A stretch of DNA of 64,000 nt, from positions 2,294,001-2,358,000 of the forward strand of contig NZ_PTRA01000001.1 of assembly GCF_002943425.1 (NCBI RefSeq), given 5' to 3'. The position numbers and the translations under genes are program-made. Below are positions 6,214 to 23,488 of this stretch, one piece after another (the first letter of the stretch is position 1; each line of letters starts with the position of its first letter). The DNA comes from Siphonobacter curvatus. GTDB taxonomy: Bacteria; Bacteroidota; Bacteroidia; Cytophagales; Spirosomataceae. The notes under the pieces were generated by a model, which saw nothing but the letters and a program-made list of their open reading frames with translations, was not told where the DNA came from and did no database searches.

Positions 6214-6245
6214 TTTGCATTTGTTTTACATCACATTGACATTAC

Positions 6246-6293
6246 AAATATTTACATAATTTATGTATAATGAAATAATTTATGTAAATATTT
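6246..6293. promoter_or_regulatory. Divergent operator with repeated palindromes
   Basis: A 14-bp perfect inverted repeat (6246-6259 and 6280-6293) contains a second perfect palindrome, ACATAA-T-TTATGT (6254-6266), in very AT-rich DNA between the leftward cluster and the XRE repressor gene. Repeated TTTATGTAAAT half sites suit a dimeric or tetrameric repressor. Regulation by the adjacent 6316-6753 protein is inferred from position. Confidence 0.6.
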
Positions 6294-6315
6294 TCACTTA
6301 TCATGCTCTATAAAA

Positions 6316-7706: not shown

Positions 7707-7883
7707 ATGCAATCATTACAACCTGAAATAATTGGATTGATATCAGCTATAATTGGAGCCATTGGAGGTTTCATTGGAGGCATTCAATATCAAAAATCAA
7801 AAACAAATCAAAAAGACATTACATTGAATGCTGGAAATAATTCTAACCAGAACATTGCTGGTAGAGATATAAGAGGAAAATAA
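7707..7883 (+). CDS. 58-aa glycine-rich membrane peptide with C-terminal signalling-like motif
   Basis: Residues 8-26 form a single transmembrane helix studded with glycine (G10, G17, G20, G21, G24, G25), a glycine-zipper-like surface that could let helices oligomerise. After a Lys/Gln linker, residues 39-55 carry an Asn/Gly-rich motif that reappears almost unchanged at the start of the next protein (13 of 17 identical). The gene ends 6 nt before ORF 7890. I infer a membrane-acting effector held off or triggered by the ABC complex; this is not a named family. Too short for routine gene callers. Confidence 0.6.
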   Translation: MQSLQPEIIGLISAIIGAIGGFIGGIQYQKSKTNQKDITLNAGNNSNQNIAGRDIRGK

Positions 7884-7889
7884 AATCAT

Positions 7890-8480
7890 ATGATAAGGGG
7901 AACCACTACTTTAAATGCTGGAAATAACAGCAAGCAGTATTATGCTATGAGAGACATTGTAAATAACAATGTTGAAATTCATTTTACAGCTTCTTTAAAC
8001 CCAAACACTATTGGCAATTTATTAAACCAATATAAACATGAGTTACAGGATCCTAGCTTTAAAAGGCAAAATGATTTCATTAAGAGGCTACAAAGATTCC
8101 TTGTAAATATTTCTACAGCAAAAATCCAAACTCTAGAAGAAAAATTAGTAGAAGGTGGATTTGACGAGAACTTAGAGTATGCTCTCTTAACAAAAGAAGA
8201 ATTTAGTAAATTTTTACTAGAATACAAATTCTCTCCTTCTATTCAAAATATTAATGCCATTTTTCTAGGGAAGATTTTTGACCAGTTTAATATGTTTATA
8301 CTACCTGAAATAAGAAAAGGGACAGATCATATTGTTATTAATGAATTAATTAATTCAACAATAATTGCCCCAATTGAAAGCTTAATATTAGACAATGATT
8401 GCGATATCGATATATTGACACATCATATTAGAGGAATGATATTTTTTTTAACCGGCAAATGCCATATTAAATGGAACTAA
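7890..8480 (+). CDS. ABC three-component system, C-terminal-domain protein
   Basis: A 196-aa protein. Residues 7-23 carry the motif shared with the 58-aa peptide, followed by an Asn-rich stretch. The rest (about 30-196) is helical and ends in MIFFLTGKCHIKW. That ending matches my memory of the adaptor partner in ABC three-component (ABC-3C) systems, where this domain is normally fused to an effector. Here the usual effector position holds only the short motif, and the membrane peptide is encoded separately upstream. It is followed after 1 nt by the middle-component gene. Likely a structural adaptor of the complex. Confidence 0.6.
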   Translation: MIRGTTTLNAGNNSKQYYAMRDIVNNNVEIHFTASLNPNTIGNLLNQYKHELQDPSFKRQNDFIKRLQRFLVNISTAKIQTLEEKLVEGGFDENLEYALLTKEEFSKFLLEYKFSPSIQNINAIFLGKIFDQFNMFILPEIRKGTDHIVINELINSTIIAPIESLILDNDCDIDILTHHIRGMIFFLTGKCHIKWN

Positions 8481-8481
8481 T

Positions 8482-8982
8482 ATGCTTGTATATCATCCAA
8501 GTTTTGATATTTATCACACTGCCTATCGAATTTTAAAAATACTCTACGATAATAGAAACATCGAAATCGAAAAGGATAGAATGAGAATCATTGATTTCAT
8601 TCTATTATTCCCTCAAGAGCTGAATAATTTCAGAGTCCCTCAAAATGCTAGCAAATTTAAAAATTTATATAAAATAACTACATACAATAAAATACCGGAT
8701 AAGAATAGAGTTTTCCAGCAAACAAGAAGTTTTTATGAAATATCACTACAATGCTTGACCAGTAGGGACTTGTTGGATTTAGACCAATACAAACAAGGGA
8801 TTTTGAAATTAAATTTAACATCAATTGATGATGGTTTAAAAACTGAACTTAGCCGTACTGACTTGATAGACCAAACTATCTTAAAAATAATTTATGATCA
8901 TTTTATTAAATTACCTACAAAGGATTTAATTGAACGCACATCTTTAGTTGACAACAAATATGCAATCTATAAAAATCAATAA
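8482..8982 (+). CDS. ABC three-component system, middle component
   Basis: A 166-aa helical protein with the opening YHPSFDIYHTAYRILKIL and a FILLFPQELNNFR segment, typical of the small middle component of ABC-3C systems (a kleisin/winged-helix-like partner of the SMC/Rad50-type ATPase). It starts 1 nt after the previous stop and its 3' end overlaps the ATPase gene by 23 nt, as expected for proteins of one complex. No catalytic motif. The role is inferred from family and gene order. Confidence 0.6.
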   Translation: MLVYHPSFDIYHTAYRILKILYDNRNIEIEKDRMRIIDFILLFPQELNNFRVPQNASKFKNLYKITTYNKIPDKNRVFQQTRSFYEISLQCLTSRDLLDLDQYKQGILKLNLTSIDDGLKTELSRTDLIDQTILKIIYDHFIKLPTKDLIERTSLVDNKYAIYKNQ

Positions 8983-10951
8983 ACTAGTTGTTTATAAAAA
9001 AAGTAGAATTGTTTATAGTCAAGATTATCATTCTGGGCTAAATATCATTAGAGGCAAAAATGGCTCTGGAAAATCCACTATCGCTAACTTCATGTATTAT
9101 GCCTTAGGGGGAGATTTTATCAATTGGCTCCCTGAAGCTCAATCGTGCGACTATGTCATTATTGAAGTTAATATTAACGGGAAAATATTAACTTTAAAGA
9201 GATACATTGAAACAAACACCATGCAGCCGATGGATATATACTATGGTAAATACGAGAATGCAATATCTCAAAAACTAGACGGATGGAATAGATATAACTT
9301 TGGAAGAAAAGATGCTAAGGAAAGTTTTAGTCAAATAATTTTTAAATATTTAAATTTCACTGAAGTCTCAACCGAAAGTGGGGATTTTATCACTTTCAAT
9401 CAAATATTAAGATTATTATATATTGATCAAATAACTCCTATTATTAACATAATCAAATCAGTAGATTTCGATAGCCCACTTATTAGGAGAACAATTGGAT
9501 ACTACCTTTACGGCTCACATGATGATTCTTTAGTAATTGACGAAAAGAATCTAAGGCTAAAAAAGAAAGAGATTAATGACTTAAAAAGTCAACAAAAAAT
9601 TTTCGTAGATATTTATGATTCCAAACAACTAAATTCAACAGATATCGACAAAGAAATCAATAAACTTACAACACAATTAGAAAAATTAAATTCTTCAATA
9701 GAAAAATCACAAACATCTAGAAATACAGCATTTAGTGAAGCCAACAAAAAGTTCAATGATAAAAAAGATAAGTTGGTTACTCTCAAAAATGAATATATTC
9801 AAATTACCAAAGACATCAATACTTATAAGATTGAAATAAGTGACAGTATTGATTTTATTAACGAACTAAAGAGCCAATCTAAATCTTTAAATACATCAAT
9901 TATAACTAGAAATATTTTAGGTTTAATGCCTGTTAGCTACTGCCCATCTTGTTTAGGTAAATTAAAAGAAAATACAGAACATAATACTTGCTCATTATGC
10001 GGCAATATACAAGAAGATGATGCCGTAAATAAAGCCACTAAGGTTAAGGAGGAAATTGATATTCAAATTAGCGAATCTGAGAGACTATTAAAACTGAGAC
10101 AAGATCGCCTAATCAAGCTAATTGATTTAGAAAACAAAACCAAAACTAATCTTTATGAAACACAAAAAGACATAGACCTTTCTGTAAAAGCTTTTACCAT
10201 TTCTTACGACTTGAAATTATCTGAGTTACTTACAACCAAAGGAGAAGTTAAAGTAAAACTTTCTCAACTATTTGAGAAGCGACAGAAAGCAATCAAGTTT
10301 GAATACATAAATGAGAAAATCAATACTTTAAATACAGATATTAGTTCTTTATTAAAAAGCATACAAAATAAAAGAATAAGTCAAAGCAATAATTCTATTA
10401 AAGTTGAAAACAAGATTCGAGATTATACTATAAAGATACTTAAAGAAGATTCTAAAGATGAAGTGTATGAATCATCATTCGTTGACCCAGAAAATGTCAA
10501 TATAGATTTTGACAAAAATTCATTTTCTATAGATGGAAGAAGTAATTTTTCAGCAAGCTCAATGGTTGTTTTGAAAAATGCTATTAGATTTTCTATATTT
10601 TTTGCTTCACTAGAATTACCGTTCATGAGGTACCCTCGATTTATACTTTGTGATAACATTGAGGATAAAGGAATGGAACCCTCAAGAAGCCATAAATTTC
10701 AAAGGACAATTGAATCCATTGCTAAGAAATTCAATAAGGAAGATTACCAAATAATATTTACCACTTCGATGATGGATGAGTCTTTGGATATAGATAAATA
10801 CACCGTTGGCCCCTCATATAACGGTAGCAATAAATCATTAGATATTCAACCTATTAATAAAAACACTGAACCATTATCTACGAATGATCAGCGTCCTAAT
10901 CTAGATTCAGACAATGACATGGATGAACTATTTAGTGATTTACCATTCTGA
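8960..10951 (+). CDS. Rad50/SMC-like ABC ATPase of an ABC three-component system
   Basis: A 663-aa protein from ATG 8960 (a TTG at 8948 is possible but less likely). The Walker A GKNGSGKST lies at 32-40. Long coiled-coil arms flank a zinc-hook-like CPSC-x12-CSLC (C328, C331, C344, C347). The C-terminal ATPase half has a degenerate signature region (FSASSMVVLKNAIRF) and a Walker B/D-loop-like FILCDNIEDKGM, then an IIFTTSM switch. Such ATPases sense aberrant or foreign DNA ends in Lamassu-like and ABC-3C defence systems. The Lys/Asn/Ile-rich codon use is unlike the flanking host genes. Very likely the sensor of this cluster. Confidence 0.8.
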   Translation: MQSIKINKLVVYKKSRIVYSQDYHSGLNIIRGKNGSGKSTIANFMYYALGGDFINWLPEAQSCDYVIIEVNINGKILTLKRYIETNTMQPMDIYYGKYENAISQKLDGWNRYNFGRKDAKESFSQIIFKYLNFTEVSTESGDFITFNQILRLLYIDQITPIINIIKSVDFDSPLIRRTIGYYLYGSHDDSLVIDEKNLRLKKKEINDLKSQQKIFVDIYDSKQLNSTDIDKEINKLTTQLEKLNSSIEKSQTSRNTAFSEANKKFNDKKDKLVTLKNEYIQITKDINTYKIEISDSIDFINELKSQSKSLNTSIITRNILGLMPVSYCPSCLGKLKENTEHNTCSLCGNIQEDDAVNKATKVKEEIDIQISESERLLKLRQDRLIKLIDLENKTKTNLYETQKDIDLSVKAFTISYDLKLSELLTTKGEVKVKLSQLFEKRQKAIKFEYINEKINTLNTDISSLLKSIQNKRISQSNNSIKVENKIRDYTIKILKEDSKDEVYESSFVDPENVNIDFDKNSFSIDGRSNFSASSMVVLKNAIRFSIFFASLELPFMRYPRFILCDNIEDKGMEPSRSHKFQRTIESIAKKFNKEDYQIIFTTSMMDESLDIDKYTVGPSYNGSNKSLDIQPINKNTEPLSTNDQRPNLDSDNDMDELFSDLPF

Positions 10952-11256
10952 TCTATTTAAAATTAAATTCATTTTTATTATAGAATCATATCATATTCAT
11001 TCAATCTTTAATTATCGCTCTGTGTACTTAATCAGGTAATTTTGAGGAATATTAAAACATTAATCCTTAATTATATAATTGTAAGTTTAATAAATTTTTG
11101 ATCTATCTATTCAATAAATTAGTTCCCATATTTTATTGAAATTTACTTTTGCTTAGTTTTAATGGCTTATTCTTAATTCACTAATAGTAGATTAGCTCAA
11201 CATGAGGTATAGTCATAGTTTTATTGTAATTCAAAGAGTGGCGGCTCTTTTGTTAG
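10952..11256. other. AT-rich intergenic region
   Basis: About 300 bp of very AT-rich sequence after the ABC cluster. I see no gene, strong hairpin or repeat in it. Confidence 0.5.
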
Positions 11257-11472
11257 CTACTTGTTGCTGATCTCTTGCTGCTTGCATAATGTGCACATTA
11301 GCATAATGTATCTTTCATTTTGCTGAGTACGCTGTTCAAGGGTAAGCTCTGTATCTGGCATAGTGAGACCTCGAACCAGAAGAGACTCTATGTCTTTTTG
11401 CCAAGCATCGGCTAGTTGTAATTCTAATAATTGATTTAAGTGTTGAGTACAGCGGTCATTCATAGTGGACAT
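11257..11472 (-). CDS. Small hypothetical protein
   Basis: A 71-aa soluble, helical protein from ATG 11472 with two cysteines near its end (CTLC). No family recognised. It stands alone, divergent from the nuclease pseudogene, and its base composition is nearer to the host than the ABC cluster. Moderate coding confidence from composition and the absence of alternatives. Confidence 0.4.
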   Translation of the reverse strand: MSTMNDRCTQHLNQLLELQLADAWQKDIESLLVRGLTMPDTELTLEQRTQQNERYIMLMCTLCKQQEISNK

Positions 11473-11621
11473 AGTAAAGCGGTGGTAAAAAATTGATCAG
11501 CCTTCCTTAGTTAAGAGGAATCAAACATAGCCCATCTCTTAATGAATGTCAATACATTTGAATAATATTTTTACACTTTGTCTATGTTTTTGCTTTAAAT
11601 ATTTAAAGCATCAATCTACCT

Positions 11622-12482
11622 ATGCATCATTTTTTATCCAAGATTAACCATTCCCAGTATCTTTTACTCGGTGTATTTCTCGTATTAACTGGCTGTAAAA
11701 AGCAAGAGGCTCAGCCTGAACTCCCTTTGAACGCGGCCTTGGGTTACCCTTCGCAGGCCTCGAAAGTGTATGATTACAAAATTGCCGAACGTTTTTTGGT
11801 TGAAAAACCTGAATACAGTCTGTGTTATTCAGGACCCGATGCTGCCGCACTCTGGGCTTCGTGGCATTTACAGAAAAGTGATTTAGGTAACGCCGTAAGA
11901 CAAGATTATTTTAGAATGGACCCAGAGGCAACCTTTGCTATTGTAAAACCTAATGACTTCACAGGAACCGGATTTGACAGAGGTCACCTCTGCCCATCAG
12001 GCGATCGCACTTCCAGCCAGGCAGCTAATTCCGCTACATTCCTTATAAATAATATCATTGCACAGTCGCCCTCGCTAAACCGAGTCGTCTGAAATGATTT
12101 GGAAGAATACTGCCGCAAACGGGTAAAGGAAGGCAATGAAGCCTATATCTATGCTGGTGGAAACGGAAAAGGCGGCTGGGGCACAAACCCTACAACCATG
12201 TATACTGGGATTTCCTTAAGTTATTACGAGGGCAGATTTTCCATGACAGTATATGAAAGCTGCTGGAAGGTTGCCCTCATCCTACCTGAAGGAAGCGATG
12301 ACCTCAATAGAATCTCAAAAGAAACAGTGGAGGTTATTGCCGTCAACATGCCTAATAGCATGGAAGTAGCCGGAACCACCTGGCAAAAATGGAAGCTTTC
12401 GGTTAAGGAGTTAGAAAGCTTAACCGGATTAGACTTTTTCTCAGCCTTGCCGCAGTCAGTTCAAGATAAATTAGAAAAGTAA
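11622..12482 (+). pseudogene. Secreted DNA/RNA non-specific endonuclease broken by a TGA
   Basis: The first part (156 codons) has a lipoprotein signal (LLGVFLVLTGC) and the NUC-type active-site motif DRGHLCPSGDRT. It stops at TGA 12090-12092. The same frame then continues at once as DLEEYCRKRVKEG...AYIYAGG, the usual next segment of this family, to 12482. The stop sits where the family has Trp after the NN-I-x-Q-x-P stretch, so TGG to TGA is the simplest change. The intact family member would be an exported Mg-dependent nuclease with a beta-beta-alpha metal fold. The gene is probably inactive. Confidence 0.75.
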
Positions 12483-12514
12483 TCGATCAATTCTCCAAAT
12501 AACTCCGTCTAACA

Positions 12515-12769
12515 ATGAAACACTTGTTTACCTTTCATATCTTCACTATTTCAACGTAAGATACCTCTGCTTAGATAGGCATTAGCACCTATACGCCTCA
12601 CCCAGCAGAGTTATTAAATGTTGCTTCAAGTGACAGGGGCATTATTATAACAAGGGTTACGGAAGATAACAGACATGGAAGTCCAAGAAAGCCCACTGTT
12701 ATTGAAGACATACTAATTTATACTACAGATAGTGAAGCAGGTATCTACATGAATAATTTCAACTCTTGA
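12515..12769 (+). pseudogene. Remnant of a surface/tail-fibre-type protein
   Basis: ATG 12515 opens a signal-peptide-like start (MKHLFTFHIF) that stops after 14 codons. In a different frame, 12575-12769 encodes AELLNVASSDRGIIITRVTE...DILIYTTDSEAGIYMNN. That resembles the N-terminal repeat of many Bacteroidota extracellular and phage tail-fibre-like proteins (A-x-L-x-x-x-S-x-x-G-x-x-x-x-R-M-T ... L-I-Y-x-T-D). Short, without a start and out of frame: a decayed fragment. Confidence 0.4.
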
Positions 12770-13008
12770 TATTAAAATGAATATAATAAATGGCATGATT
12801 TAAACAGAGCGCAGCACAATTCTTGAAATAAAACTTAGGTTTATAAAGCATTTAGTAACTTATATTAATTACCTAATAAAATAATAACAAACTAATAATA
12901 ATTTTAAATCACATATAAAAAAGCAAACATAATTTATAAATAGGTATATTTATCTAACGATATCTCAATTTTATGTTATTACAAAAACAAATCTAAATAT
13001 TCAATATA

Positions 13009-14190
13009 ATGAATCCCAAAATTGTAATAAACAAAAACATCTCTTATAAAGATGTAGATTATTGCTACGAAGTACTTTACAATTGTATTGCAAAAAGTAT
13101 AACTGTTGATTTTGAGTTGCCCTCAAAATTTGAAAGCAAAAATATAGGGATGGAAATTATAATTTTACAACTATCAATAACATGGTCAAGGTCATTCAAG
13201 GATGGTAATTTATTAATAAATCTATATAATAATATAACTAGTATAAATAACATTTACGATAACGAAATTCTTTTTCCAATAATCACATACGCATGGAACA
13301 GACATAATATATTAGATAATACTGGAAAATATGATCTTAAAGGATATTTAAGAGTACCTAATAAGGAAATACATGACAAAATGCTAAAAGCATTACCATT
13401 AAAAGGTCAGAAATTATTATTAACATCTTTTGATCATCTGCCTAAAAAAAGAGGCATACTACCTTGTTTTGAGCCAAATGGAGAGTACATTGAAAATGAA
13501 CAATATCTCCTAGAAAATCTACATAAATCATTATACAACATTATTAACTTATCTACTATCACAAAACATAATTATAGTAAAGTCAGCATGCCTATAGTTA
13601 ATATAATTTATGAGCTAATGAAAAATACATATGAGTGGGCGAAAACTGATGAAAATTCAATTCCCTTAGATCCTAATATTAGAGGACTATATATTCAATT
13701 TATTAGAAAAGATAGGCAACAATTGATTCAAACCTCAACAGAAAATCCGGGTTTAGTAAATTACTTCAATAGCTCAGCTTTAAAAGAAAATAGTATAGGA
13801 GAATTATATCTTGTTGAAATCACTGTTTTCGATAGCGGTCCTGGATTTATTAAAAAATTTGAATCAACAAATGATGTACCAAATATTAATAAATTGAATA
13901 TATTAAAAAAATGTTTAACTAAGCATATGACCTCAGACCAAAGTATTTATAAAGATGTGAAAGGTCTAGGTTTAGACAGAATTTTAAGAACATTAAATAA
14001 TAAAGGATTTTTGAGAATTAAAACTGATGAATTACACATTTATAGAGATCTAATAAATACCCCATATGTCAATACTTCAAATAGTGAGGATATAGATCTA
14101 TTTGATTGGACTTCTAATGAAAAAAACGAAATTATTCAAAACTATTATTCTCACGGTTCCGTCCTTTCTATCATCTATCCTTTGTCATAA
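13009..14190 (+). CDS. GHKL (Hsp90/histidine-kinase-type) ATPase
   Basis: A 393-aa protein. Residues 1-190 do not match a domain I know. The second half has the three GHKL ATP-binding boxes: N box ELMKN (E202, N206), G1 box DSGPG (D275-G279) and G2 box GLGL (G319-L322). No histidine-kinase dimerisation or Hsp90 middle domain is visible. The gene is 6 nt upstream of the PRTase-like gene 14197-16494 and clearly forms an operon with it. Both are extremely AT-rich. GHKL proteins of this stand-alone kind occur in predicted conflict systems; the function here is inferred. Confidence 0.75.
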   Translation: MNPKIVINKNISYKDVDYCYEVLYNCIAKSITVDFELPSKFESKNIGMEIIILQLSITWSRSFKDGNLLINLYNNITSINNIYDNEILFPIITYAWNRHNILDNTGKYDLKGYLRVPNKEIHDKMLKALPLKGQKLLLTSFDHLPKKRGILPCFEPNGEYIENEQYLLENLHKSLYNIINLSTITKHNYSKVSMPIVNIIYELMKNTYEWAKTDENSIPLDPNIRGLYIQFIRKDRQQLIQTSTENPGLVNYFNSSALKENSIGELYLVEITVFDSGPGFIKKFESTNDVPNINKLNILKKCLTKHMTSDQSIYKDVKGLGLDRILRTLNNKGFLRIKTDELHIYRDLINTPYVNTSNSEDIDLFDWTSNEKNEIIQNYYSHGSVLSIIYPLS

Positions 14191-14196
14191 CTCATT

Positions 14197-16494
14197 ATGA
14201 ATAATATATATATCTACGAATTTAAACATAAAGAAAAAGTATTAGAAGTTTTAAAGGAAATTTCAACTACTGTAATCTTTTGTTCAGGAAAAACTCTTAA
14301 TCAATCAGAAATCGTAAAAGAAATCAAGGATTTCTACCAATCTAATTACCAAACTGACAAGATTGTAGTGATTGGCGGTCTTTACCTTAAAGACCAACTA
14401 ATAGATATTTTTTCGACAAAAATTTTAGATACTTTTAAATATATACCTAAAAGAGAGGAGTCATATTTAAGAGATAATATAACGATATACACATTTGACA
14501 AAAATAGAAGCCTCACTGCAATCCAAGGTAAGGCATCTGACAAATTTAAATCGAAATATATTAACGAGGGTTTACAAAATATATTCCTTAAACGAGGTGG
14601 AATAGTTGAAAGTGCAGGATTACATCACTTTGTTTTTCCATCAGGGAAGCATTGCAATAAATTTTTAAGAACGGGGAATATACTACTAATTAGTTCAGAA
14701 ATATATTTTATTGCATTCACCCTTTTAAACAGATTTAATGAAGAAATACATAGCAAAATATATTGCGATACCTCTTCAATTAATGTTATAGCTTTTACTC
14801 TAATTGAATTAAAACATAGATTAAAAAAATCTTTTAAAAATGATATATCAGTAGAAAGCTTTAGTTCCTATGATGGAATACAGAACAACTCTATTAGCTA
14901 TCACAAAAACTCATTTTTTATAATTTCAGCATCAACTTCAGGAAATATTGTCGAAAAGCTTTTAAAAAATAATCCAATTATAGAAAATGATAATATTGTA
15001 ATCCTATTTTATTTAGGGGAAAGTGGCAATATCAGAAATAACATAATTTGCGACTTAACTATTAGCAATAAAAATCAAAATGGTATTAAAGAATTTGAAT
15101 CATATCAAAAGGATAATTGTGCATTATGCAAAACTGGTTCATATGCCTTAAGTGTATTTGGCGATGTCTTTTTATTAGATAGTCCTAAAATAAATAAACA
15201 TATTATAACAGTTAATGATGCAAATCCAAATTTGTCAAAATTTGTCCAACAATTTAAGTCAGTGAACCGTATTAATACAATTTTAAAAGTCAATTATAAA
15301 GAAAATACTTCTACAGAAGCATATGAGATATTTATAGACTATTCTGAAATAATTAATGGTATTAGGGAGAATAAATATCCAGAATATAAACAAAAAATCA
15401 ATCATTACATTGATCAATATGTACCAAGTAATGTTAGGTATATAGTTAATTTACGCGATCAGGCATCTAAGGATTTATCTATGTATATATATGATCAAAT
15501 TAACGAAAATTACACTCATGAAAGAAAACCTCAATTAATTGATCAGAATAGTATAGATAGCATAAACAGTGAAAGTACAGGAGCAGTTATAGTTGTAGGT
15601 TCTTGCATATCTAATGGGAAAAATTTACTTTATTTAAGCAGAGCTCTTAGGAAACATGAAAATTTGCGAATTTTGTACTTTATAGGCTTAACCAGAATGC
15701 AGAATGAGGGTAGCTTAAACTTTTTAATTAGCAATTTATCACACGGCAACTATGGTAAAAATACCAATTCATTTCATAGCATTGAAACTATGCCATGCGA
15801 TAATAGTTCTAAATTTAATTCTTGGCTTTCCGAAATTGAATTTTTAAAAGAGTTAACTTTATTCGTAGAGGATACCTATGGAAACAATGCTTTATTTAAG
15901 TCCTTTATCGAAGAAAGAAAACAGATAATATATAAAAGTTTAAGCAATACGCAACGAGGGTTATCTAATAATCTATTTTACCCTAGATATAAGTTTCAAA
16001 CAAACGAAACTGAAGAACTTATACTAAGAAAGAATTTTGCATTTTTTAATTTTGACAATTACTACCAACATGTAAGTCAATCAGATGTATATTTTACTAT
16101 TTCAAATATTATCAATCAGCTTAGAAGTTCTAATGGATCAAAACAATTAATACAATCTCCCTATATCAGAAATCTGCTTGATCCAGCAAATTTTGATCGC
16201 TTCAATGATGGCATAATACAAGCTTCTATCCTCCGTTGTGCAAGACCAGAAGAACTCAATTATTCATTAGATTTAGTGGCTTCACAAGCCATGTCAGCAA
16301 CCTTAGAAACATTGATTCGATATAATACTCAAGAACAGGGTGAAGCCTTACTAGAATTTCTATATGCTATTGCTAATAAAAAAATGTCACTAATGAAAGA
16401 ACATATTTTAAAAACCTTTTCATCAGAAAAAACAACTTCTTTACATCCCTTTTATAAAATGTTTACTGATTATATTTTAGCTAATATTATTTAG
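14197..16494 (+). CDS. Tandem degenerate phosphoribosyltransferase-like protein
   Basis: A 765-aa protein with two PRPP-loop-like segments: SFFIISASTSGN (239-250) and GAVIVVGSCISNGK (462-475). Both have the small-residue loop and preceding hydrophobic strand of type I PRTases, but the usual acidic DD pair is replaced (SA, GS). An orotate-PRTase-like HFVFPSGKH (about 144-152) precedes the first, and a CALC pair (C308, C311) could bind metal. The last 250 residues are helical and unrecognised. It follows the GHKL gene by 6 nt and overlaps the convergent sce7725 gene by 8 nt. It may bind a nucleotide without PRTase catalysis. Confidence 0.6.
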   Translation: MNNIYIYEFKHKEKVLEVLKEISTTVIFCSGKTLNQSEIVKEIKDFYQSNYQTDKIVVIGGLYLKDQLIDIFSTKILDTFKYIPKREESYLRDNITIYTFDKNRSLTAIQGKASDKFKSKYINEGLQNIFLKRGGIVESAGLHHFVFPSGKHCNKFLRTGNILLISSEIYFIAFTLLNRFNEEIHSKIYCDTSSINVIAFTLIELKHRLKKSFKNDISVESFSSYDGIQNNSISYHKNSFFIISASTSGNIVEKLLKNNPIIENDNIVILFYLGESGNIRNNIICDLTISNKNQNGIKEFESYQKDNCALCKTGSYALSVFGDVFLLDSPKINKHIITVNDANPNLSKFVQQFKSVNRINTILKVNYKENTSTEAYEIFIDYSEIINGIRENKYPEYKQKINHYIDQYVPSNVRYIVNLRDQASKDLSMYIYDQINENYTHERKPQLIDQNSIDSINSESTGAVIVVGSCISNGKNLLYLSRALRKHENLRILYFIGLTRMQNEGSLNFLISNLSHGNYGKNTNSFHSIETMPCDNSSKFNSWLSEIEFLKELTLFVEDTYGNNALFKSFIEERKQIIYKSLSNTQRGLSNNLFYPRYKFQTNETEELILRKNFAFFNFDNYYQHVSQSDVYFTISNIINQLRSSNGSKQLIQSPYIRNLLDPANFDRFNDGIIQASILRCARPEELNYSLDLVASQAMSATLETLIRYNTQEQGEALLEFLYAIANKKMSLMKEHILKTFSSEKTTSLHPFYKMFTDYILANII

Positions 16495-17422
16495 CTAATT
16501 CAAATAGTAGTTCAATATGATGTTTCATAGAGATCTTCTTAATACCTCCTAGACCAGGAAAATATTCTGATTTATGATTAGATCTGAACTCATTAGTTCC
16601 ATCCGTATTATCTCCAAATCTTCGTCCAGAGTTCAAAAAATCAATTAAATGATTTAAAGCTTCCAAATATTTACCAGCTTGATTTGATGGTCCATCTTTT
16701 CTATCAGATAGAAAATGGAACATCTTATTTTCACCATTCTCTGTTACTGTATAATGTATAACAACTGCATGCGGGTTTCCAGAACGTCCGTTATTATATT
16801 TCTTACCTACTGATAAAAAATCACTACAACCATAATATCCTTGTTGTTTGTAAAGGAAAACATTCTGACAATAATAGTCTTCTTGTGGATAATCTTTATT
16901 AGTCTTATGCTTGACAAATCCATCCCTTAATATGATTTTCTTGTTAGCAGGAAATGATATTCTATAGTTAGGCATTGTTTCGTCTTCATCAAAAATATTA
17001 TACTCTATAGATTCATCATTTTCAATAAATTCTATTAATTCATCCTGATCTTTATAGTTAGTATTGTGTATGATAACCTTTTTAAAGTTAGTATAGCCTG
17101 TTAAAATATTTATTATTTTTGAAATAGGTTCATCTTTATCTAATATGATACCAATATAAACGTTATTTAAATTTCCGCTTAGCAAGGGAAGAATCGTATT
17201 TTCTACTTCATTATCTTGAGTATGGTTACCAACCTTCGGATTAATTATCAATACAAACGGAAATCTACCTTCTCCTAGAAGTTTATACGTTTCTAAGTTC
17301 TCACCAGAAGTATTAACTGGTTCTATAATAGGTAAAAAGGATTCGCTTTGTACTAATCTTTCATTTGTTTCTAAAAGGGCGAGAAGCTCAAATTTTTTAC
17401 CTCTGAGATAGGGCATGTACAT
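16487..17422 (-). CDS. sce7725 family protein (beta family)
   Basis: A 311-aa protein whose N-terminus MYMPYLRGKKFELLAL and later FLPIIEPV segment match the sce7725 family, which travels with sce7726 in accessory regions. It has no membrane segment. The middle holds a conserved HYTV and FHFLSDR stretch, and the C-terminus is helical. It overlaps the upstream sce7726 gene by 26 nt in the same direction, so the two are one operon. Biochemical role unknown; a defence or mobile-element role is inferred from where the pair is usually found. Confidence 0.75.
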   Translation of the reverse strand: MYMPYLRGKKFELLALLETNERLVQSESFLPIIEPVNTSGENLETYKLLGEGRFPFVLIINPKVGNHTQDNEVENTILPLLSGNLNNVYIGIILDKDEPISKIINILTGYTNFKKVIIHNTNYKDQDELIEFIENDESIEYNIFDEDETMPNYRISFPANKKIILRDGFVKHKTNKDYPQEDYYCQNVFLYKQQGYYGCSDFLSVGKKYNNGRSGNPHAVVIHYTVTENGENKMFHFLSDRKDGPSNQAGKYLEALNHLIDFLNSGRRFGDNTDGTNEFRSNHKSEYFPGLGGIKKISMKHHIELLFELAK

Positions 17423-18299
17423 AAGGCGGAAATGGTTTGGAGTTAAAAGTATTATGTAGTTGTGTACATTCAGCCCCTGTGAAGTGCTTTCCTAAACATA
17501 ACATCTTTAGAGCTGCTCCTACACTTTTAACCAAGTCTAGCTGCTCATCTTTTAGTTTACGCTTACGCAATACCTTCACAAAGCTTTCGTGTGCTTCGAT
17601 ATTAGGTAATTGTTTAAATAAATTCAAGCAATAATCATATATTTTTGTATTGGGCATATTGGGAACCTTGTCAAACTTCTCTCTTATTAGTGAGCAATAC
17701 TCTGCTTTCCTTAGTGATGAAAACATAGCTGCATGATTTAATTGGCCGACATTAGACCTGGCTTCTTTAAGTGTGAATAGTCTGTTATTTTGGTTTAACA
17801 CCATAAGTCCAGCTGATTCAGGCAACAGTCTTTCAACCTTTACTGCGAACGCTTCATGGGTGACCACGAAAGTTTTATCAAACATTTCCGTGTAAGAGTT
17901 CAACTGAACGGGTAATCGGCTTAGTGAGTCTAGTTCCGTCTTAATTTCATAAGCAGTAGTAGTCCCGTTGACGATTAATAAGTCTAGTTGGGAAATACCA
18001 GCTCTAAATTCCGAGAAGAGAATGGCTTTCTTTAAAGAGTGCTTTTTAAGCAGTAACTGATTAGCTACCGTATTCTTGTAGACGTATTCGAAACGATAAT
18101 TCTGAGAAAGGTATTTGTAGATGAGTTCCAACGTCTGCTCTACTGTTGCGTAAGTAGGTAAACGGTGAATTAGCCCTGTTTCATTCAATATTTCCTTTAA
18201 CTTGTCCTGATAAGAATTCGTCAGATAGTCGTTAAGAAAGCTAGTAGTAAATACAGTAGCTAGCTTTTTATTGAAGGTCGGGTCAATCTTTGAACGCAT
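17397..18299 (-). CDS. sce7726 family protein, PD-(D/E)XK-nuclease-like
   Basis: A 300-aa protein with FEYVYKNTVANQLLLKKHSL then EFRAGISQLDLLIV and AYEIKTELD, the sce7726 pattern. E97, D106 and E118-x-K120 have the order and spacing of a PD-(D/E)XK nuclease active site, as seen in restriction-like and Cas4-like nucleases. The C-terminal 130 residues are helical. It is the first gene of a two-gene operon with sce7725. DNA cleavage is inferred from the motif and has not been shown for this protein. Confidence 0.75.
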   Translation of the reverse strand: MRSKIDPTFNKKLATVFTTSFLNDYLTNSYQDKLKEILNETGLIHRLPTYATVEQTLELIYKYLSQNYRFEYVYKNTVANQLLLKKHSLKKAILFSEFRAGISQLDLLIVNGTTTAYEIKTELDSLSRLPVQLNSYTEMFDKTFVVTHEAFAVKVERLLPESAGLMVLNQNNRLFTLKEARSNVGQLNHAAMFSSLRKAEYCSLIREKFDKVPNMPNTKIYDYCLNLFKQLPNIEAHESFVKVLRKRKLKDEQLDLVKSVGAALKMLCLGKHFTGAECTQLHNTFNSKPFPPYVHALSQR

Positions 18300-18759
18300 G
18301 GATGTAAAGTGCTAGAAGTGGGTAACTTCTTCTATAAACTGCCGTAAAAGTAAGACCAGACCTGTTCAATCCGACTTTATTAGACATGTTTTATAAACGA
18401 TTACCTCTAAATATTTATTGAGACGGCTAGTTTGTAGCTTGCCATATCCTTAGCAATATCGGTAGTTTGTCTAAGCAAGAGTTAACTTACCTTTAGAAGG
18501 AGGAGCTCCTTACATTAGCCTTTGCAAATCTTATAATCTTTAGGATGTCATGAACGCAATAAACTATACGCATCCTATATTTACACCAACATCCTACTGA
18601 ATATCAGATCATTAATAATATTTTATTTAATAAAAAACAAATTTTATTTTTTCGACGTTTGTATCAACAAAGCTATAATTATCGTATTATTGCTTGTAAC
18701 GTACCGTGAGGAGAGAGTCAGAGGGGCTGGAGGTACTTCACCTTTAATTAGTAAAGGGT
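18300..18759. other. Intergenic region at the end of the AT-rich block
   Basis: About 460 bp between sce7726 and ORF 18760. It holds promoters for both sides by necessity and a purine-rich leader (18706-18740). I see no gene, terminator or clear attachment-site repeat. Confidence 0.4.
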
Positions 18760-18948
18760 ATGAAAGCTCCACTTTCTAAAGAGATTGCCAAGGTCCTAAG
18801 GAATGATGCTTCAGCGAATAAATTGATCAGTACGATCATAAAAGCCAGAGAGTCGAATAAAGGGGTTGCTGTCACGGTAGATGGAAAGACCCAAGTGTAT
18901 CGATCTTCTGGGAGTTATCATTCGTCAAGCGTTGGTAAGAAAAAATGA
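18760..18948 (+). CDS. Small basic protein
   Basis: A 62-aa protein from ATG 18760: a helical first half (KEIAKVLRNDASANKLISTI), a beta-like KGVAVTVDGKTQVY and a Ser/Lys tail. No named family recognised. It precedes the membrane protein gene by 10 nt in the same direction, so the two are probably one operon. Confidence 0.5.
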   Translation: MKAPLSKEIAKVLRNDASANKLISTIIKARESNKGVAVTVDGKTQVYRSSGSYHSSSVGKKK

Positions 18949-18958
18949 TTTGTAACGC

Positions 18959-19858
18959 GTGAATTTTTTATTCGCCACTGTCCTGGTACTACTCATCGTG
19001 GCACCAGGACTTACTTTTTTTAGGGCTTATTATTCTGGATCGTTCTCACATCGCTATGGAAGGCTCACCATATCCGACCAAATCTTTAGGTCGATTGTTC
19101 CTGGGATCACTGCACAGGCCATTGCTATCCTTTTCGTTAACGAATGTCCACTCTTAGATTCAGTAGATCTGCGAATTCTTGGTATGCTGCTAATTGGGCC
19201 CAAGGATGATGCTACTGTTAAAGAAAGCTTTCAAGTAATCGAGGCGTCCTTGGGAAGAGTAATTACCTATCATTTATTGTTAATTCTACTGGGAGCTTTG
19301 TTAGGCTGGAGAGCCCGCAGCTTCATACGTCGGAAAAAATTCGATCGCAGGTTGAACTGGCTTCGCTATGATAACAAGTGGTTTTACTTATTAAAAGGTG
19401 AAGTGGTAGAATTCAAAGATGGGGAAGATATCTTTGGTTTTTCAGATGCAAGTCTCATCCGGTTTGTTATTGTAGATATACTAACGAAAGTAGAAGGAGG
19501 CAATGTTATCTACACTGGTGCACTCTATGACTTTGATTTGGAACAGGATGGCGGCTTGAAAACCTTGCACATAAGAGCCGCTCAGCGAAAATTTGTCAAA
19601 ATTGCGGCATCCCTATCTAAGGACTCAGAAACTACCCCTGACACCTTACAAAATATGGAGGAACAGGAATCTGTAGACGTAGTTTCAGAATCGCTTCAGG
19701 CCGAAGAACTAGAATCGGAATATCAGGAAATTCCTGGAAAGCTCTTGACTATTCCCTATAGCCAAATCATTAATATGAATATTTCCTATTATGTAGTGGA
19801 AACAGAAGTAACTAACACTACTAACGGCGTTGAACCTTCTGACATCAGAGAGGTGTAG
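18959..19858 (+). CDS. Membrane protein with two spans and a soluble domain
   Basis: A 299-aa protein from GTG 18959. Hydrophobic segments at about 1-20 and 95-118 (LLLILLGALLGW) give two spans around a periplasmic loop. A cytoplasmic domain (about 130-235) contains WLRYDNKWFYLLKGE and two beta-rich stretches, then a Glu/Ser-rich linker and a final beta segment. It may belong to the DUF6338-type group, but I am not sure. Its neighbour is the 62-aa protein upstream. A terminator lies 160 nt downstream. Confidence 0.5.
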   Translation: MNFLFATVLVLLIVAPGLTFFRAYYSGSFSHRYGRLTISDQIFRSIVPGITAQAIAILFVNECPLLDSVDLRILGMLLIGPKDDATVKESFQVIEASLGRVITYHLLLILLGALLGWRARSFIRRKKFDRRLNWLRYDNKWFYLLKGEVVEFKDGEDIFGFSDASLIRFVIVDILTKVEGGNVIYTGALYDFDLEQDGGLKTLHIRAAQRKFVKIAASLSKDSETTPDTLQNMEEQESVDVVSESLQAEELESEYQEIPGKLLTIPYSQIINMNISYYVVETEVTNTTNGVEPSDIREV

Positions 19859-20650
19859 TTCTAAGCTTTTGTTCTTGACAACCTTGTTCTTAGAGTTTAT
19901 GTTTGCATAAGCAAGGCAGCACCTACAACCGCACCTTACTTAGACCTCCATAGCTTACATTGCTGATTATCAATTTGTTTATAGCACATAACTGTGTCTC
20001 CCCAACGTCACAGTCAAAAACCCGTTCTGGAGCAATCTGAACGGGTTTTTTCTTGTCTTAATGGGTTGTGGTAAGTGCGGTCCTGTCGATAAGATCACCC
20101 CGGGATCTGATCCTTCTTACGTCTAGTTACAGGCAGTACGGCTCAAAACTATAGTAAAACGATGGCTTGTCGTTTACTACCGCTAGTCGCTGGCTCACGG
20201 CTACCTTCCCTCTAATCATCTTTTTCGGTTTCATTCAATGTACTACACTGAGAACCAGGCACTAATTTACCTTTTACATACCTCAGAAAGGTTACCGTCA
20301 CCGATGAAATTCTACAATAGCTACTAAGCTTTCCTGTTCGGAAAATTCTAAGAACAAAAATGGAGTAGCGTACGCAGAGCTAAATGTTTCCTTCATTCTC
20401 AAAGAATTTTAGCCTTGGACTGATAATACGTTTACCATAAGAAAAGAAAACAGCATCCTAATTCCCCTTTGTGACAACAAGAATTGTTTTGAATAAAATC
20501 TTCGATGATTTATTCCATTATCTTATATCATCTATTAATACTCAATTAGTAACTTACCAGTCCTAATACAGGGGACATCTGAGAGTTTATTGATACTACT
20601 TCCAGTACCTAATTACGAGTTTTCCAATCCAAATTAAGATATAAAATAGC
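19859..20650. other. Long non-coding gap
   Basis: About 790 bp with no convincing ORF. Apart from the terminator at 20018-20050, I see no structure I can defend. Confidence 0.4.
20018..20050 (+). terminator. Intrinsic terminator
   Basis: AACCCGTTC (20018-20026) pairs with GAACGGGTT (20038-20046) around an 11-nt loop, followed by TTTT. It is placed to end transcription from gene 18959-19858, or from an unrecognised RNA in the 160 nt between. Confidence 0.7.
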
Positions 20651-21481
20651 ATGAGACGTCAGTTTTCACTTCCGTTAAGCAAAAGCCGTTTTCCCGACCT
20701 GAAGCGACTTTCTTTTGCCTTACAGGCAGCTCAAGTAGGAACCTGGGATTTGGATTTGGAACGAAGGCAAATCTGGTGGGATGAGCGATGCCGAGAACTG
20801 CACGGGTTTATTAAAGAAGTAGAAGTTCCCTATAAAACGTCATTAGAGTACATCCACCCCGACGATCAAAAACGGGTAGATCAGGCGGTTGCCTGGGCCC
20901 TAAATCCCAAATCTCTAGGTGACTACGAGATTGAATTCAGAACCATTGGTGGCGAAGATTATAAGCTACGTTGGGTACATAGCAAGGGACAGGCCTTTTT
21001 TGACGAAAACGGAAAGCCCTATCGCTTTTCAGGCATTATTCAGGACATCACCTCGCTGGTACAGGCCCGTCAGCAATTAGAGGCTAGCGAACGCCACTGG
21101 CGTAGCATGATTGAAAATTCTCCGGCCCCTACCGCCGTGCTCATCGGACGTGAAATGAACGTTCAGGCTTCTAATAAAGCAATGCTTGAAATCCTCGGTA
21201 GAGATGAAACTATTGTAGGCAAAAACCTTCTTGACGCTATTCCTGAATTTGAAAGTCAACCGATGGTCGGCCTGGCCCTAAAAGTTTATGAAACGGGTTA
21301 CATTTATCATGATCCGGAAGGCGGAGTGGCTATTTTGAAAGACAGCTGTTTACAAGAATATTGGTTTAACTACACCTACACGCCATTAGTCAACGAGAAG
21401 AAAAAGACATACGGCGTAATGGTTACAGCGATTGATGTTACAGCCCTGGTACACGCTCGCCGTCTATTAGAAGATAAGTAG
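20651..21481 (+). CDS. Tandem PAS/PAC protein without output domain
   Basis: A 276-aa protein with two PAS domains. The first (about 22-140) has GTWDLDLERRQIWWDE, YIHPDDQ and the PAC ending YRFSGIIQDITSL. The second (about 150-265) starts ERHWRSMIENSPAPTAVL and ends TYGVMVTAIDVTAL. The short coiled coil after it (HARRLLEDK) normally connects to a histidine kinase domain, but the ORF stops and nothing kinase-like follows. It is either a truncated sensor kinase or a stand-alone PAS adaptor. No signal peptide, so cytoplasmic. Confidence 0.75.
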   Translation: MRRQFSLPLSKSRFPDLKRLSFALQAAQVGTWDLDLERRQIWWDERCRELHGFIKEVEVPYKTSLEYIHPDDQKRVDQAVAWALNPKSLGDYEIEFRTIGGEDYKLRWVHSKGQAFFDENGKPYRFSGIIQDITSLVQARQQLEASERHWRSMIENSPAPTAVLIGREMNVQASNKAMLEILGRDETIVGKNLLDAIPEFESQPMVGLALKVYETGYIYHDPEGGVAILKDSCLQEYWFNYTYTPLVNEKKKTYGVMVTAIDVTALVHARRLLEDK

Positions 21482-22574
21482 AATCACTTTAAGATCTAAA
21501 CCTAATTACATGAGGCCTACAGATCAAAATTCTTACAACAGATTCTCTACAAAGTCAACGTCATAAAATGTGGCTTTCCTATATTTAAATCAATCTTTAA
21601 ATCTTCATCAAGATTATATTAGTGACTAAAAGTTTTTAGCCTTTTTTCCTTGCTTATAAATCTCATTGGCTTGGATACTAAGATACTTGTAACTTATATA
21701 ATCTTGCTGAAATTTTAAAGGTACCTAATCCGCAAGCTAAGCTACCCAACTCCATTTTTTCCCTAACACACTCTGAGTTAACCCAATAGGATTATTCGTA
21801 AATCGCTCCTAACGGGAACCAAGACACTTTGCTTGCCGTTTGTTAATCTTAATTCTTGTACAAATCTGTCATTACTTAGTAATATTTTGTACTTTTTTTA
21901 GGTAATGGTATAGCCTTTTAAGGTATACAGAAAAAATATAGCTCAATGTATAGGTTGATCTGAATATCTTTTCATCTGATTCTACTATAATGTTGATCAA
22001 ATTTATCATTAGCTAATTCAGAATTAGCTCATTTTTGGTCCAGTGACGTTTTAGATTCAGGAAAATTCATACGATTGCTGGTAAAGAACGTGGTGATTTG
22101 ATTGACATTTGGTAGTAAAATACTCTAGATTGTTAAAAATAAAGCGATTATAAACTATTGTTAACATTTATTGATCATATTTGACGTATAGTCTTAATTG
22201 ATTTACTTGTAAACACTTGTATTACCCAAACCCCTTTTGGTTTCCGGAAGGGGTTTATTGCGGGGCTTTTCTTGCTTTTCCTTTCTCTATCACAGCTTTT
22301 TCTACTAGGATGTAGTCCGTACATCTACAGTTGCTTTATTTCCTATCCAATGATCAGAGGAATTTTCTCATAGAATTCTTAAATTTGCGAATTATTTGAA
22401 AAAGGATTAGTATAACCTCATTGGCCTTGCTGGTGAGGTTTATTGTAGTCGGCGAAAAGAATGCATTTTGGACCGAATTTAACTTGAAAAAAATCGTTAG
22501 TACTAGCTGAGTTATAGTCTGAATACGAACTCATTAGTGTTTATCGAAGCGATCATTCCCTTATTATCCCCCCT
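21482..22574. other. Long AT-rich non-coding gap
   Basis: About 1.1 kb without a gene between the PAS protein and the exonuclease. It contains no kinase remnant that I can read. The only clear element is a strong hairpin at 22228-22256, roughly 750 nt after the PAS stop, so a small RNA ending there is possible. Confidence 0.45.
22228..22256 (+). terminator. Hairpin terminator without obvious upstream gene
   Basis: AAACCCCTT (22228-22236) pairs perfectly with AAGGGGTTT (22248-22256) around 11 nt; the following U-run is short (TTTATT). No ORF ends nearby, so it may mark the 3' end of an unannotated transcript. Confidence 0.55.
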
Positions 22575-23483: not shown

Positions 23484-23488
23484 GTGTT

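What the first reader, a model, noticed from the sequence alone, without database searches (positions are those of the whole stretch)
13009..16494. GHKL ATPase plus tandem degenerate PRTase pair
A stand-alone GHKL ATPase with all three ATP boxes is fixed 6 nt from a 765-aa protein with two PRPP-loop-like sites, both lacking the acidic pair needed for normal catalysis. The operon is AT-rich, flanked by a sce7725/7726 pair and an ABC-3C cluster. A nucleotide-sensing or nucleotide-modifying conflict system is plausible, and I cannot match it to a named one.
Basis: partly seen in the sequence, partly recalled or inferred. Interest (0 to 1): 0.75.

Follow-up and report, generated by a model that had tools for sequence, protein, structure and literature searches.

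The report
GHKL ATPase with dead PRTase tandem
Two neighbouring bacterial genes, already catalogued as an untested anti-virus defence candidate, encode an ATP-binding switch and a protein derived from a nucleotide-making enzyme that has lost its catalytic residues, and may act together as a nucleotide-sensing defence.

Summary
Window 13009-14190 encodes a 393-aa GHKL ATPase; 14197-16494 encodes a 765-aa protein with two phosphoribosyltransferase (PRTase)-like domains. The pair is not nameless: both proteins match PADLOC's untested phage-defence candidate PDC-M65 over their length (E 3e-141, 3e-301).

Structure models are confident. The ATPase half is closest to SpoIIAB; the partner's second domain to orotate PRTases. 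The first domain shows sequence similarity to two orotate-PRTase-like proteins in the base-binding hood. The catalytic acidic pair is absent from both sites in all 93 sequences compared, while hood and a Ser-Gly phosphate-loop remnant are conserved.

Among 97 loci found through the second gene, the first is adjacent in 94; three are cut by contig ends. The pair is sporadic (6 of 200 family genomes), also on plasmids, sometimes inside type I restriction operons. One Hyphomicrobiales clade adds thyX, the only thyX in three of three genomes, beside thyA.

Best reading: a defence module in which a non-catalytic PRTase derivative senses a pyrimidine nucleotide and the GHKL ATPase is the switch. Ligand, effector and anti-phage activity are untested.

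The parts
13009..14190 (+). PDC-M65A: N-terminal alpha/beta domain (about residues 1-130, unassigned) plus SpoIIAB-like GHKL ATPase domain (about 131-393)
   Evidence: PADLOC PDLC04764 E 3.4e-141 over 1-393; AlphaFold2 pLDDT 94.2, pTM 0.93; VIA Z 9.2, rmsd 3.1, 138 residues to SpoIIAB 1til
13612..13641 (+). GHKL N box (residues 202-211; E202 and N206 invariant)
   Evidence: 63 of 63 aligned sequences
13831..13845 (+). GHKL G1 box DxGxG (residues 275-279)
   Evidence: 63 of 63
13963..13974 (+). GHKL G2 box GxGL (residues 319-322)
   Evidence: 63 of 63
14197..16494 (+). PDC-M65B: N-terminal alpha/beta part (1-111), PRTase-like domain 1 (about 112-335), PRTase-like domain 2 (about 340-540), helical C-terminal domain (about 541-765); borders are mine, from the model's secondary structure
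   Evidence: PADLOC PDLC04765 E 3.1e-301 over 1-762; AlphaFold2 pLDDT 92.1, pTM 0.84
14626..14670 (+). Orotate-PRTase-like base hood of domain 1 (residues 144-158)
   Evidence: F156 in 93 of 93, R158 in 92, H152 in 89, H144 in 88; domain-1 profile finds two pyrE-like proteins at E 6.3e-6 and 3.1e-5, next hit 3.5, no reversed decoy listed
14920..14946 (+). Degenerate PRPP loop 1 (residues 242-250, I-I-S-A-S-T-S-G-N)
   Evidence: S244 in 93 of 93; no acidic residue at 242-247 in 93; S248 in 88, G249 in 85
15118..15129 (+). CxxC near the end of domain 1 (C308, C311); the two pyrE-like proteins L007 and L008 also have a C-terminal CxxC
   Evidence: 86 of 93 at each position; sequences, alignment to L007
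15586..15624 (+). Degenerate PRPP loop 2 (residues 464-476)
   Evidence: G474 in 88 of 93, no acidic residue at 468/469 in 93; domain 2 aligns to orotate PRTase 4rv4, Z 12.8, rmsd 4.7, 187 residues
16198..16236 (+). Signature of the helical C-terminal domain (residues 668-680, R-F-N-D-G-I-I-Q-A-S-I-L-R), strongly conserved, function unknown
   Evidence: R668, D671, Q675, R680 and also E720 in 93 of 93; note that 82 of the loci were found with a pattern from this stretch
7890..10951 (+). Neighbour, not part of the pair: ABC-3C cluster (CTD9, MC5, LmuB-like ABC ATPase)
   Evidence: no blastp match among the other 92 loci
16487..18299 (-). Neighbour, not part of the pair: sce7725 and sce7726 genes on the opposite strand
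   Evidence: NF033831 E 9.4e-70 and NF033832 E 3.6e-50; no blastp match among the other 92 loci

Best explanation
The pair is a stand-alone two-protein defence module (PADLOC candidate PDC-M65). Protein B descends from orotate PRTase: two PRTase-fold domains that keep the base-stacking hood (domain 1) and a Ser-Gly phosphate-loop remnant, but have lost the acids that hold the ribose diol and Mg-PRPP. It would therefore bind a pyrimidine nucleotide or related metabolite without turning it over. Protein A is a SpoIIAB-like GHKL ATPase that would act as an ATP-gated clamp or kinase on B. When infection changes the nucleotide pool, ligand occupancy of B would change, A would switch state, and the conserved helical C-terminal domain of B (or A's kinase activity) would carry out the effect. 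In one Hyphomicrobiales clade an extra ThyX sits beside the pair on the same strand, which points to the thymidylate branch of pyrimidine metabolism. Shown here: the predicted folds, the conserved boxes, loss of the acidic pair, adjacency, sporadic distribution and the thyX linkage. Inferred: defence function, ligand class, complex formation, direction of signalling, identity of the effector.
For: PADLOC match of both window proteins over their length, and of 63 of 63 aligned A sequences. A adjacent to B in 94 of 97 loci found through B, the other 3 cut at contig ends. Type I restriction genes (clusters named by me) within five genes in 14 of 93 loci, including hsdM..hsdS-A-B-hsdR on one strand in L058 and hsdS-A gaps of 2 and 4 nt in L043 and L057. 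Plasmid copies beside Qat, TIR and ThiF/multiubiquitin genes. Rare and sporadic: 6 of 200, 5 of 395, 0 of 14 controls. AT-rich block absent, but for one 46-bp match, upstream of the conserved flank in the 3 congeners (of 5) that have that flank. PRTase fold, OPRT sequence link of domain 1, acids lost in 93 of 93, GHKL boxes 63 of 63. thyX next to the pair in 6 loci of one clade; in 3 of 3 genomes searched that is the only thyX, with thyA elsewhere.
Against: No experiment. No ligand, no complex model, no recognised effector domain. The thyX link covers one clade only (6 of 93 loci). The excess of restriction genes over positions +/-8 is modest: type I REase at least 5 of 83 and 3 of 87 next to the pair, 1 of 90 far, and the far set also holds other defence genes (only 25 families shown per call). 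hhalign did not separate true from false: domain 2 against OPRT gave E 0.007 and domain 1 against domain 2 E 0.003, while domain 1 and domain 2 against unrelated STAS gave 0.0036 and 0.0072. Domain 1 aligned out of register to a mixed OPRT profile there, and its HMMER profile found 2 of 31 OPRTs only. Domain 2 has no HMMER hit to OPRT (best E 2.7). Pfam recognises no PRTase in 14 of 14 B members scanned and HATPase_c only weakly in 2 of 63 A members; Foldseek alone found no match for A at E <= 0.001.
Confidence: 0.42

Rival explanations
1. Partner-switching kinase: A is a SpoIIAB-type protein kinase that phosphorylates B (for instance on a conserved Ser of a PRTase loop) and thereby locks or releases it; the PRTase sites are docking surfaces rather than ligand sites.
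For: Closest listed fold of A's ATPase domain is SpoIIAB, Z 9.2; the Glu of the N box is invariant in 63 of 63; S224 and S244 of B are in 93 of 93.
Against: No STAS domain detected in A: hhalign of A's N-terminus against 30 STAS and 8 DUF4325 domains gave nothing. Neighbouring genes were not searched for STAS. Conservation of a base hood is better explained by ligand binding.
Confidence: 0.2
2. B is an enzyme of a new kind: its conserved D191, H144, R158 and the R668/D671/Q675/R680/E720 set build an active site that modifies a nucleotide, protein or nucleic acid, with A as regulator.
For: Invariant polar residues of the C-terminal domain in 93 of 93; the fold of that part was barely tested.
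Against: The PRTase acids are absent at both sites in 93 of 93; no known enzyme family matches.
Confidence: 0.2
3. Toxin-antitoxin-like pair or plasmid-stabilising module, not specifically antiviral.
For: Mostly overlapping or abutting two-gene arrangement, plasmid and island carriage.
Against: Large, conserved proteins; B found without A only at contig ends (A without B was not searched); embedding in restriction operons.
Confidence: 0.13
4. Metabolic or stress regulator of pyrimidine synthesis carried on mobile DNA, unrelated to phage.
For: OPRT ancestry and thyX linkage.
Against: Sporadic distribution, absence from controls, defence-gene neighbours.
Confidence: 0.05

Closest known systems
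PADLOC PDC-M65 (A and B)
   Same: Both proteins match over their length, in adjacent genes; 63 of 63 aligned A sequences match PDC-M65A.
   Different: No difference found. PDC-M65 is an uncharacterised candidate; domains, ancestry and thyX linkage are described here. 'PDC-M65' stands in 0 papers of the library.
Orotate PRTase (PyrE; PDB 4rv4, and 4paw, titled hypothetical protein HP1257)
   Same: PRTase fold; hood motif and C-terminal CxxC as in two pyrE-like proteins.
   Different: Tandem, fused to a helical domain, acidic pair absent at both sites in 93 of 93.
SpoIIAB/RsbW-type GHKL kinases
   Same: All boxes; closest listed structural match.
   Different: Extra N-terminal domain of about 130 residues; no STAS domain found in it.
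Clover (CloA dGTPase, CloB)
   Same: A defence keyed to thymidine nucleotides (dTTP) (PMC12265719, passages read); the parallel is by analogy with the thyX link only.
   Different: Different proteins: no dGTPase or nucleotidyltransferase match in the pair.
Thymidylate-synthase and PRTase systems validated by DefensePredictor
   Same: PMC13092281 (passages read) reports a thymidylate synthase as a validated defence domain and names a PRTase in the legend of a figure of validated systems.
   Different: Those came from E. coli strains; a blastn search with one Pantoea copy of this pair found no match in 20,395 E. coli records. I could not compare the proteins themselves.
ABC-3C and sce7725/7726
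   Same: Lie on either side in the window.
   Different: No blastp match at E 1e-6 in the flanks held of the other 92 loci.

Membership tests
PDC-M65 | Adjacent genes matching PDLC04764 and PDLC04765 over full length | tested here: met
PDC-M65 | Carried inside known defence systems (guilt-by-embedding, as described in passages of PMC12988326 and PMC10855318) | tested here: met
   Met for some relatives, not for the window copy: 14 of 93 loci have type I restriction genes within five genes, e.g. embedded in L058
PDC-M65 | Anti-phage activity | not testable with these tools
   Needs an experiment
Type I PRTase / orotate PRTase | PRTase fold | tested here: met
   19 of Foldseek's best 20 chains (E 2e-5 to 1e-3) are PRTases by title or by recalled identity; VIA Z 12.8 for a range that is mainly domain 2; domain 1 by sequence
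Type I PRTase / orotate PRTase | PRPP loop with two adjacent acidic residues | tested here: not met
   0 of 93 at either site
Type I PRTase / orotate PRTase | OPRT base-hood motif | tested here: met
   Domain 1 only, by similarity to 2 of 31 OPRT-like proteins
GHKL ATPase | N, G1 and G2 boxes | tested here: met
   63 of 63
GHKL ATPase | Bergerat fold | tested here: met
   VIA Z 9.2, rmsd 3.1, 138 residues to SpoIIAB; Foldseek alone gave no match at E <= 0.001
GHKL ATPase | Pfam HATPase_c match over cut-off | tested here: not met
   0 families for the window protein; 2 of 63 sequences weakly, best E 0.0075
SpoIIAB partner-switching | STAS-domain partner | tested here: inconclusive
   Profile comparison of A's N-terminus negative; its fold barely tested; neighbours not searched for STAS
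ABC-3C | Pair is an additional component of the ABC-3C system | tested here: not met
   The window's ABC-3C proteins have no blastp match at E 1e-6 in the flanks of the other 92 loci; one +1 gene matches the PADLOC model LmuC
Clover | dGTPase effector plus nucleotidyltransferase | tested here: not met
   No such match to A or B in Pfam or PADLOC at E <= 1

The most novel reading that the evidence does not exclude
PDC-M65B is a deoxypyrimidine-nucleotide sensor evolved from orotate PRTase. Losing the acids that grip the ribose 2'- and 3'-hydroxyls while keeping the base hood and phosphate loop would let it accept dUMP or dTMP, and the GHKL partner would turn this reading into a halt of thymidylate supply or another lethal response. 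The private ThyX found beside the pair in one clade, a thymidylate synthase unrelated to ThyA, would be the host's bypass or the enzyme that resets the signal. It would be an immune system built from a dead biosynthetic enzyme that guards thymidylate metabolism.
Probability: 0.18. Interest if true: 0.82.

Novelty: new member of a known kind. Interest (0 to 1): 0.52.

Why it matters
PDC-M65 is one of many catalogued defence candidates without a mechanism. Knowing that one partner is a catalytically dead PRTase tandem of orotate-PRTase descent, the other a SpoIIAB-like ATPase, and that an accessory thymidylate synthase travels with one branch makes it directly testable: which nucleotide does it read, and does it act on thymidylate supply? 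If confirmed, it would add a biosynthetic pseudoenzyme to the ways in which bacteria monitor nucleotide pools during infection.

Tried and rejected
STAS domain at A's N-terminus: suggested by the order of helices and strands, not supported by hhalign against 30 STAS and 8 DUF4325 domains; left unassigned. VIA listed only the GHKL part of A and mostly domain 2 of B, so the folds of A 1-130, B 1-111 and B 541-765 are untested rather than new. hhalign as a test of homology: its 24 comparisons did not separate expected from unrelated pairs (best: A's ATPase domain against SpoIIAB-type domains, E 0.0018; but domain 1 of B against STAS 0.0036), so I do not rest the PRTase claim on it.

Phage carriage: no match of B or A in 50,697 phage records; two loci in viral contigs. 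Viral fold library: 4 matches at E <= 0.001, with poor superposition; PRTases, one named PRTase-CE, come below that. PDB sequence search: 0 hits for B's profile and one irrelevant hit (E 0.033) for A's. Rfam: nothing over gathering score in 6000-22600. Promoter scan: no excess over shuffles. First scans of genome contigs and viral contigs with one protein found nothing; the alignment query worked, keeping the best 80 of 128 in genome contigs. Search of 397 genomes in the order of a thyX-bearing locus found only that locus.

Literature: 'PDC-M65' in 0 papers. GHKL + phosphoribosyltransferase + anti-phage: 1 paper, whose passages are not about this pair; the same paper for GHKL + thyX + phosphoribosyltransferase. 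Searches returned listings of which I saw 20 of 67, 15 of 107, 15 of 36, 20 of 315 and 8 of 63 papers; no title or abstract start named the pair; one search held 0 papers. Supplements were not searched and most preprints are not held. The preprint cited for PDC systems (Payne et al. 2024, doi 10.1101/2024.01.29.577857, seen only as a reference in PMC12988326) is not held.

Rows dropped before counts: L001 and L003 (own genome again) and L007 and L008 (orotate-PRTase-like, not B) everywhere; L002, L004, L005, L006 from the neighbourhood counts (clusters), as only 5 kb of each was held; L033, L034, L089 as near duplicates; L009 and L019 from the -2 set (85 to 83), because their -2 gene is A. The 94 and 97 loci still hold a few near duplicates (for example L005 and L050, L032 and L033, L025 and L034). 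The +/-8 control is a random 90 of the genes at those positions. A3 and A4 hold only the window and loci from the search for related loci, to obey the rule of structure prediction; plasmid copies enter only.
Full report
WHAT IS THERE. Two ORFs on the + strand, 13009-14190 (393 aa, A) and 14197-16494 (765 aa, B), lie 6 nt apart in a block of about 27-36% GC; most of the rest of the window is at 44-52%. The window is part of a 6.39-Mb assembly that holds one copy of B. Upstream are an ABC-3C cluster (CTD9, MC5, ABC ATPase) and a broken nuclease gene; downstream, on the other strand, sce7725 and sce7726. Pfam and NCBIfam give no usable family for A or B. PADLOC-DB does: PDC-M65A (E 3.4e-141, residues 1-393) and PDC-M65B (E 3.1e-301, residues 1-762).

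RELATIVES. I gathered relatives from plasmids (11 records), a phylum survey (7 of 395 genomes with a hit), 80 of 128 confirmed loci in GTDB genomes and 2 viral contigs. Two of the seven phylum hits are not B but pyrE-like proteins (named by me from their intact PRPP motif). Of 97 loci with B (repeats of the own genome left out, a few other near duplicates kept), A lies next to it, upstream and on the same strand, in 94; in the other 3 (L035, L067, L087) B begins within 310 bases of the contig end. All loci were found through B, so A without B was not searched. In L019 and L100 A is in two pieces, and in L009 B is in two. The ORFs overlap by 1-8 nt in 56, lie 0-20 nt apart in 26 and are otherwise in 12 of 94 loci, with longest-ORF starts. 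Hosts include Bacteroidota, Alpha-, Beta- and Gammaproteobacteria, and single bins labelled Planctomyces, Acidobacteria and Verrucomicrobia.

DISTRIBUTION. The pair is rare and patchy: 6 of 200 genomes of the window's family, among them 1 of 5 other congeners; 5 of 395 in the phylum; 1 of 397 in the order of a Mesorhizobium locus, namely that locus; 0 of 14 control genomes. Of 5 other congeners, 3 share the flank at 22574-24217. In these three, alignment to the window stops near 22 kb (L209, L210) or near 20 kb (L211); the 14.5-17.6 kb upstream of that hold nothing of the AT-rich block at DNA level but a 46-bp match in L210. One of the three (G395) has B on another contig. This fits a variable island.

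DEFENCE CONTEXT. Type I restriction genes lie within five genes, on either strand, in 14 of 93 loci (the clusters were named by me from their sequences, and PADLOC recognised type I subunits at -2 and +1). In L058 the order on one strand is hsdM, hsdS, A, B, hsdR with other genes between hsdM and hsdS. In L043 and L057 hsdS ends 2 and 4 nt before A. PADLOC scans (E <= 1e-10, largest count for one model, 25 families shown per call) of the gene before A found type I REase in 5 and specificity subunits in 5 of 83; the gene after B, type I REase in 3 of 87; genes at +/-8, type I REase in 1 of 90, mad3 in 3, E1-E2 in 2, and Gabija, Dpd and others once each. So the whole neighbourhood is rich in defence genes, and the excess next to the pair is mainly restriction genes and modest in size. 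Plasmid copies lie near Qat (L017), TIR (L011) and ThiF/multiubiquitin genes (L011, L013). PDC systems are described as candidates found by 'guilt-by-embedding' and mostly unvalidated (PMC12988326 and PMC10855318, passages read). The ABC-3C and sce7725/7726 genes of the window have no blastp match at E 1e-6 in the flanks held of the other 92 loci: neighbours, not parts.

PROTEIN A. The model is confident (pLDDT 94.2, pTM 0.93). Residues from about 131 on align to SpoIIAB (1til, Z 9.2, rmsd 3.1, 138 residues) and then to other GHKL proteins; Foldseek alone found nothing at E <= 0.001. hhalign to 30 SpoIIAB-type domains aligns the boxes in register (E 0.0018), though unrelated pairs in the same test reached 0.0036. 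The boxes are invariant in 63 of 63 sequences. The first 130 residues form an alpha/beta domain that I could not assign; STAS was tested by profile and not supported.

PROTEIN B. The model is confident (pLDDT 92.1, pTM 0.84). Of Foldseek's best 20 chains (E 2e-5 to 1e-3), 15 are titled orotate PRTase or UMP synthase, 2 are HP1257 (titled hypothetical, an orotate PRTase by recall), 2 are HGPRT by recall, and 1 is a chain of a poxvirus transcription complex. VIA places orotate PRTase 4rv4 on 343-683 (Z 12.8, rmsd 4.7, 187 residues), that is mainly on domain 2. Domain 1 is linked by sequence: its profile finds the two pyrE-like proteins L008 and L007 at E 6.3e-6 and 3.1e-5 (search size set to 5000), with no reversed decoy listed and the next hit at 3.5; the match centres on the hood motif. 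The whole-family PADLOC profile had found the same two proteins in the phylum survey (E 6.9e-4 and 2.4e-6). The other 29 OPRT-like proteins were not found. Domain 2 finds no OPRT by HMMER (best 2.7). hhalign gave E 0.007 for domain 2 against OPRT and 0.003 for domain 1 against domain 2, but 0.0036 and 0.0072 for domains 1 and 2 against unrelated STAS, so it decides nothing. Pfam saw no PRTase in 14 of 14 members. B is thus a tandem of PRTase-fold domains by structure prediction, the first with detectable OPRT sequence similarity.

WHAT IS LOST AND KEPT. Across 93 B sequences no D or E occurs at 242-247 or at 468/469, where PRTases carry the acidic pair. S244 is in 93, S248 in 88, G249 in 85 and G474 in 88. 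In the hood, F156 is in 93 and R158 in 92. D191, S224, R485, R668, D671, Q675, R680 and E720 are in 93 of 93; the C-terminal ones lie in or near the stretch used as search pattern, which favours their conservation in this sample. C308 and C311 are in 86 of 93 each. From general knowledge of PRTases (recalled), the acids hold the ribose hydroxyls and Mg-PRPP, the Ser/Thr-Gly half of the loop holds the 5'-phosphate, and hood aromatics stack on the base. A protein that keeps the last two and lost the first should bind but not transfer; it might even prefer deoxyribose. That last step is inference.

THYX. FAD-dependent thymidylate synthase (NCBIfam TIGR02170, E 3e-58 to 8e-55 in three tested) lies just before A in L011, L012, L013, L073 and L096 and just after B in L062, on the same strand. 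In a midpoint-rooted FastTree of B, read without support values, these six plus L087 form one clade, in which L087 has no sequence upstream of B. L062 is only 33% identical to the rest, so the association looks old and rearranged. In the three whole genomes searched (those of L096, L073, L062; completeness not told) this thyX is the only one, and each also has thyA. The clade thus carries an accessory thymidylate synthase beside the pair. Among the other loci no member of that thyX cluster was found in the flanks, so it is an add-on, not a core part.

MECHANISM. I favour: B senses a pyrimidine (perhaps deoxypyrimidine) nucleotide without catalysis; A is the ATP-driven switch; the effector is either B's conserved C-terminal helical domain or A as a kinase. 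The recent Clover work shows that thymidine nucleotides can be read as infection signals by quite different proteins (PMC12265719, passages read), and DefensePredictor reports a validated defence system with a thymidylate synthase and names a PRTase in a legend of validated systems (PMC13092281, passages read). These make the idea plausible; they do not show it. Confidence in the whole mechanism is 0.42; in the weaker claim that the pair is a defence module I would put about 0.75.

NOVELTY. The family is catalogued as PDC-M65, so the window copy is a new member of a known, uncharacterised kind. I found no published account of its domains or of the thyX link in the searches named, of which I saw capped listings and a few passages, and which do not cover supplements or most preprints; the preprint cited for PDC systems could not be read.

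Noticed in passing
window 11622-12482: DNA/RNA non-specific endonuclease gene (PF01223) interrupted by an in-frame stop at 12090-12092.
   Followed up: partly
window 7890-10951: Complete-looking ABC-3C cluster (CTD9, MC5, LmuB-like ABC ATPase) a few kb upstream of the pair.
   Followed up: partly
window 1062-4125, minus strand: Genes with weak AAA and HTH_36 and clear DUF4494 matches, at host-like GC, that could be a mobile or replication module.
   Followed up: no
L011, L012, L013, L062, L073, L096: thyX beside the pair in one Hyphomicrobiales clade, besides a separate thyA in 3 of 3 genomes searched.
   Followed up: yes
window 7082-7127 and 19996-20065: Short stretches (46 and 70 bp) matching congener loci L210 and L211, where most of the block is absent; possible remnants of island ends.
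   Followed up: no
L009:9001-11327 and L019:8765-9996: B is annotated in two CDS in the Spirosoma plasmid copy, and A is split in the Siphonobacter copy: possible decay or frameshifts.
   Followed up: no
window 20651-21481: Stand-alone tandem PAS-domain protein; Pfam shows no kinase part in the same ORF.
   Followed up: no
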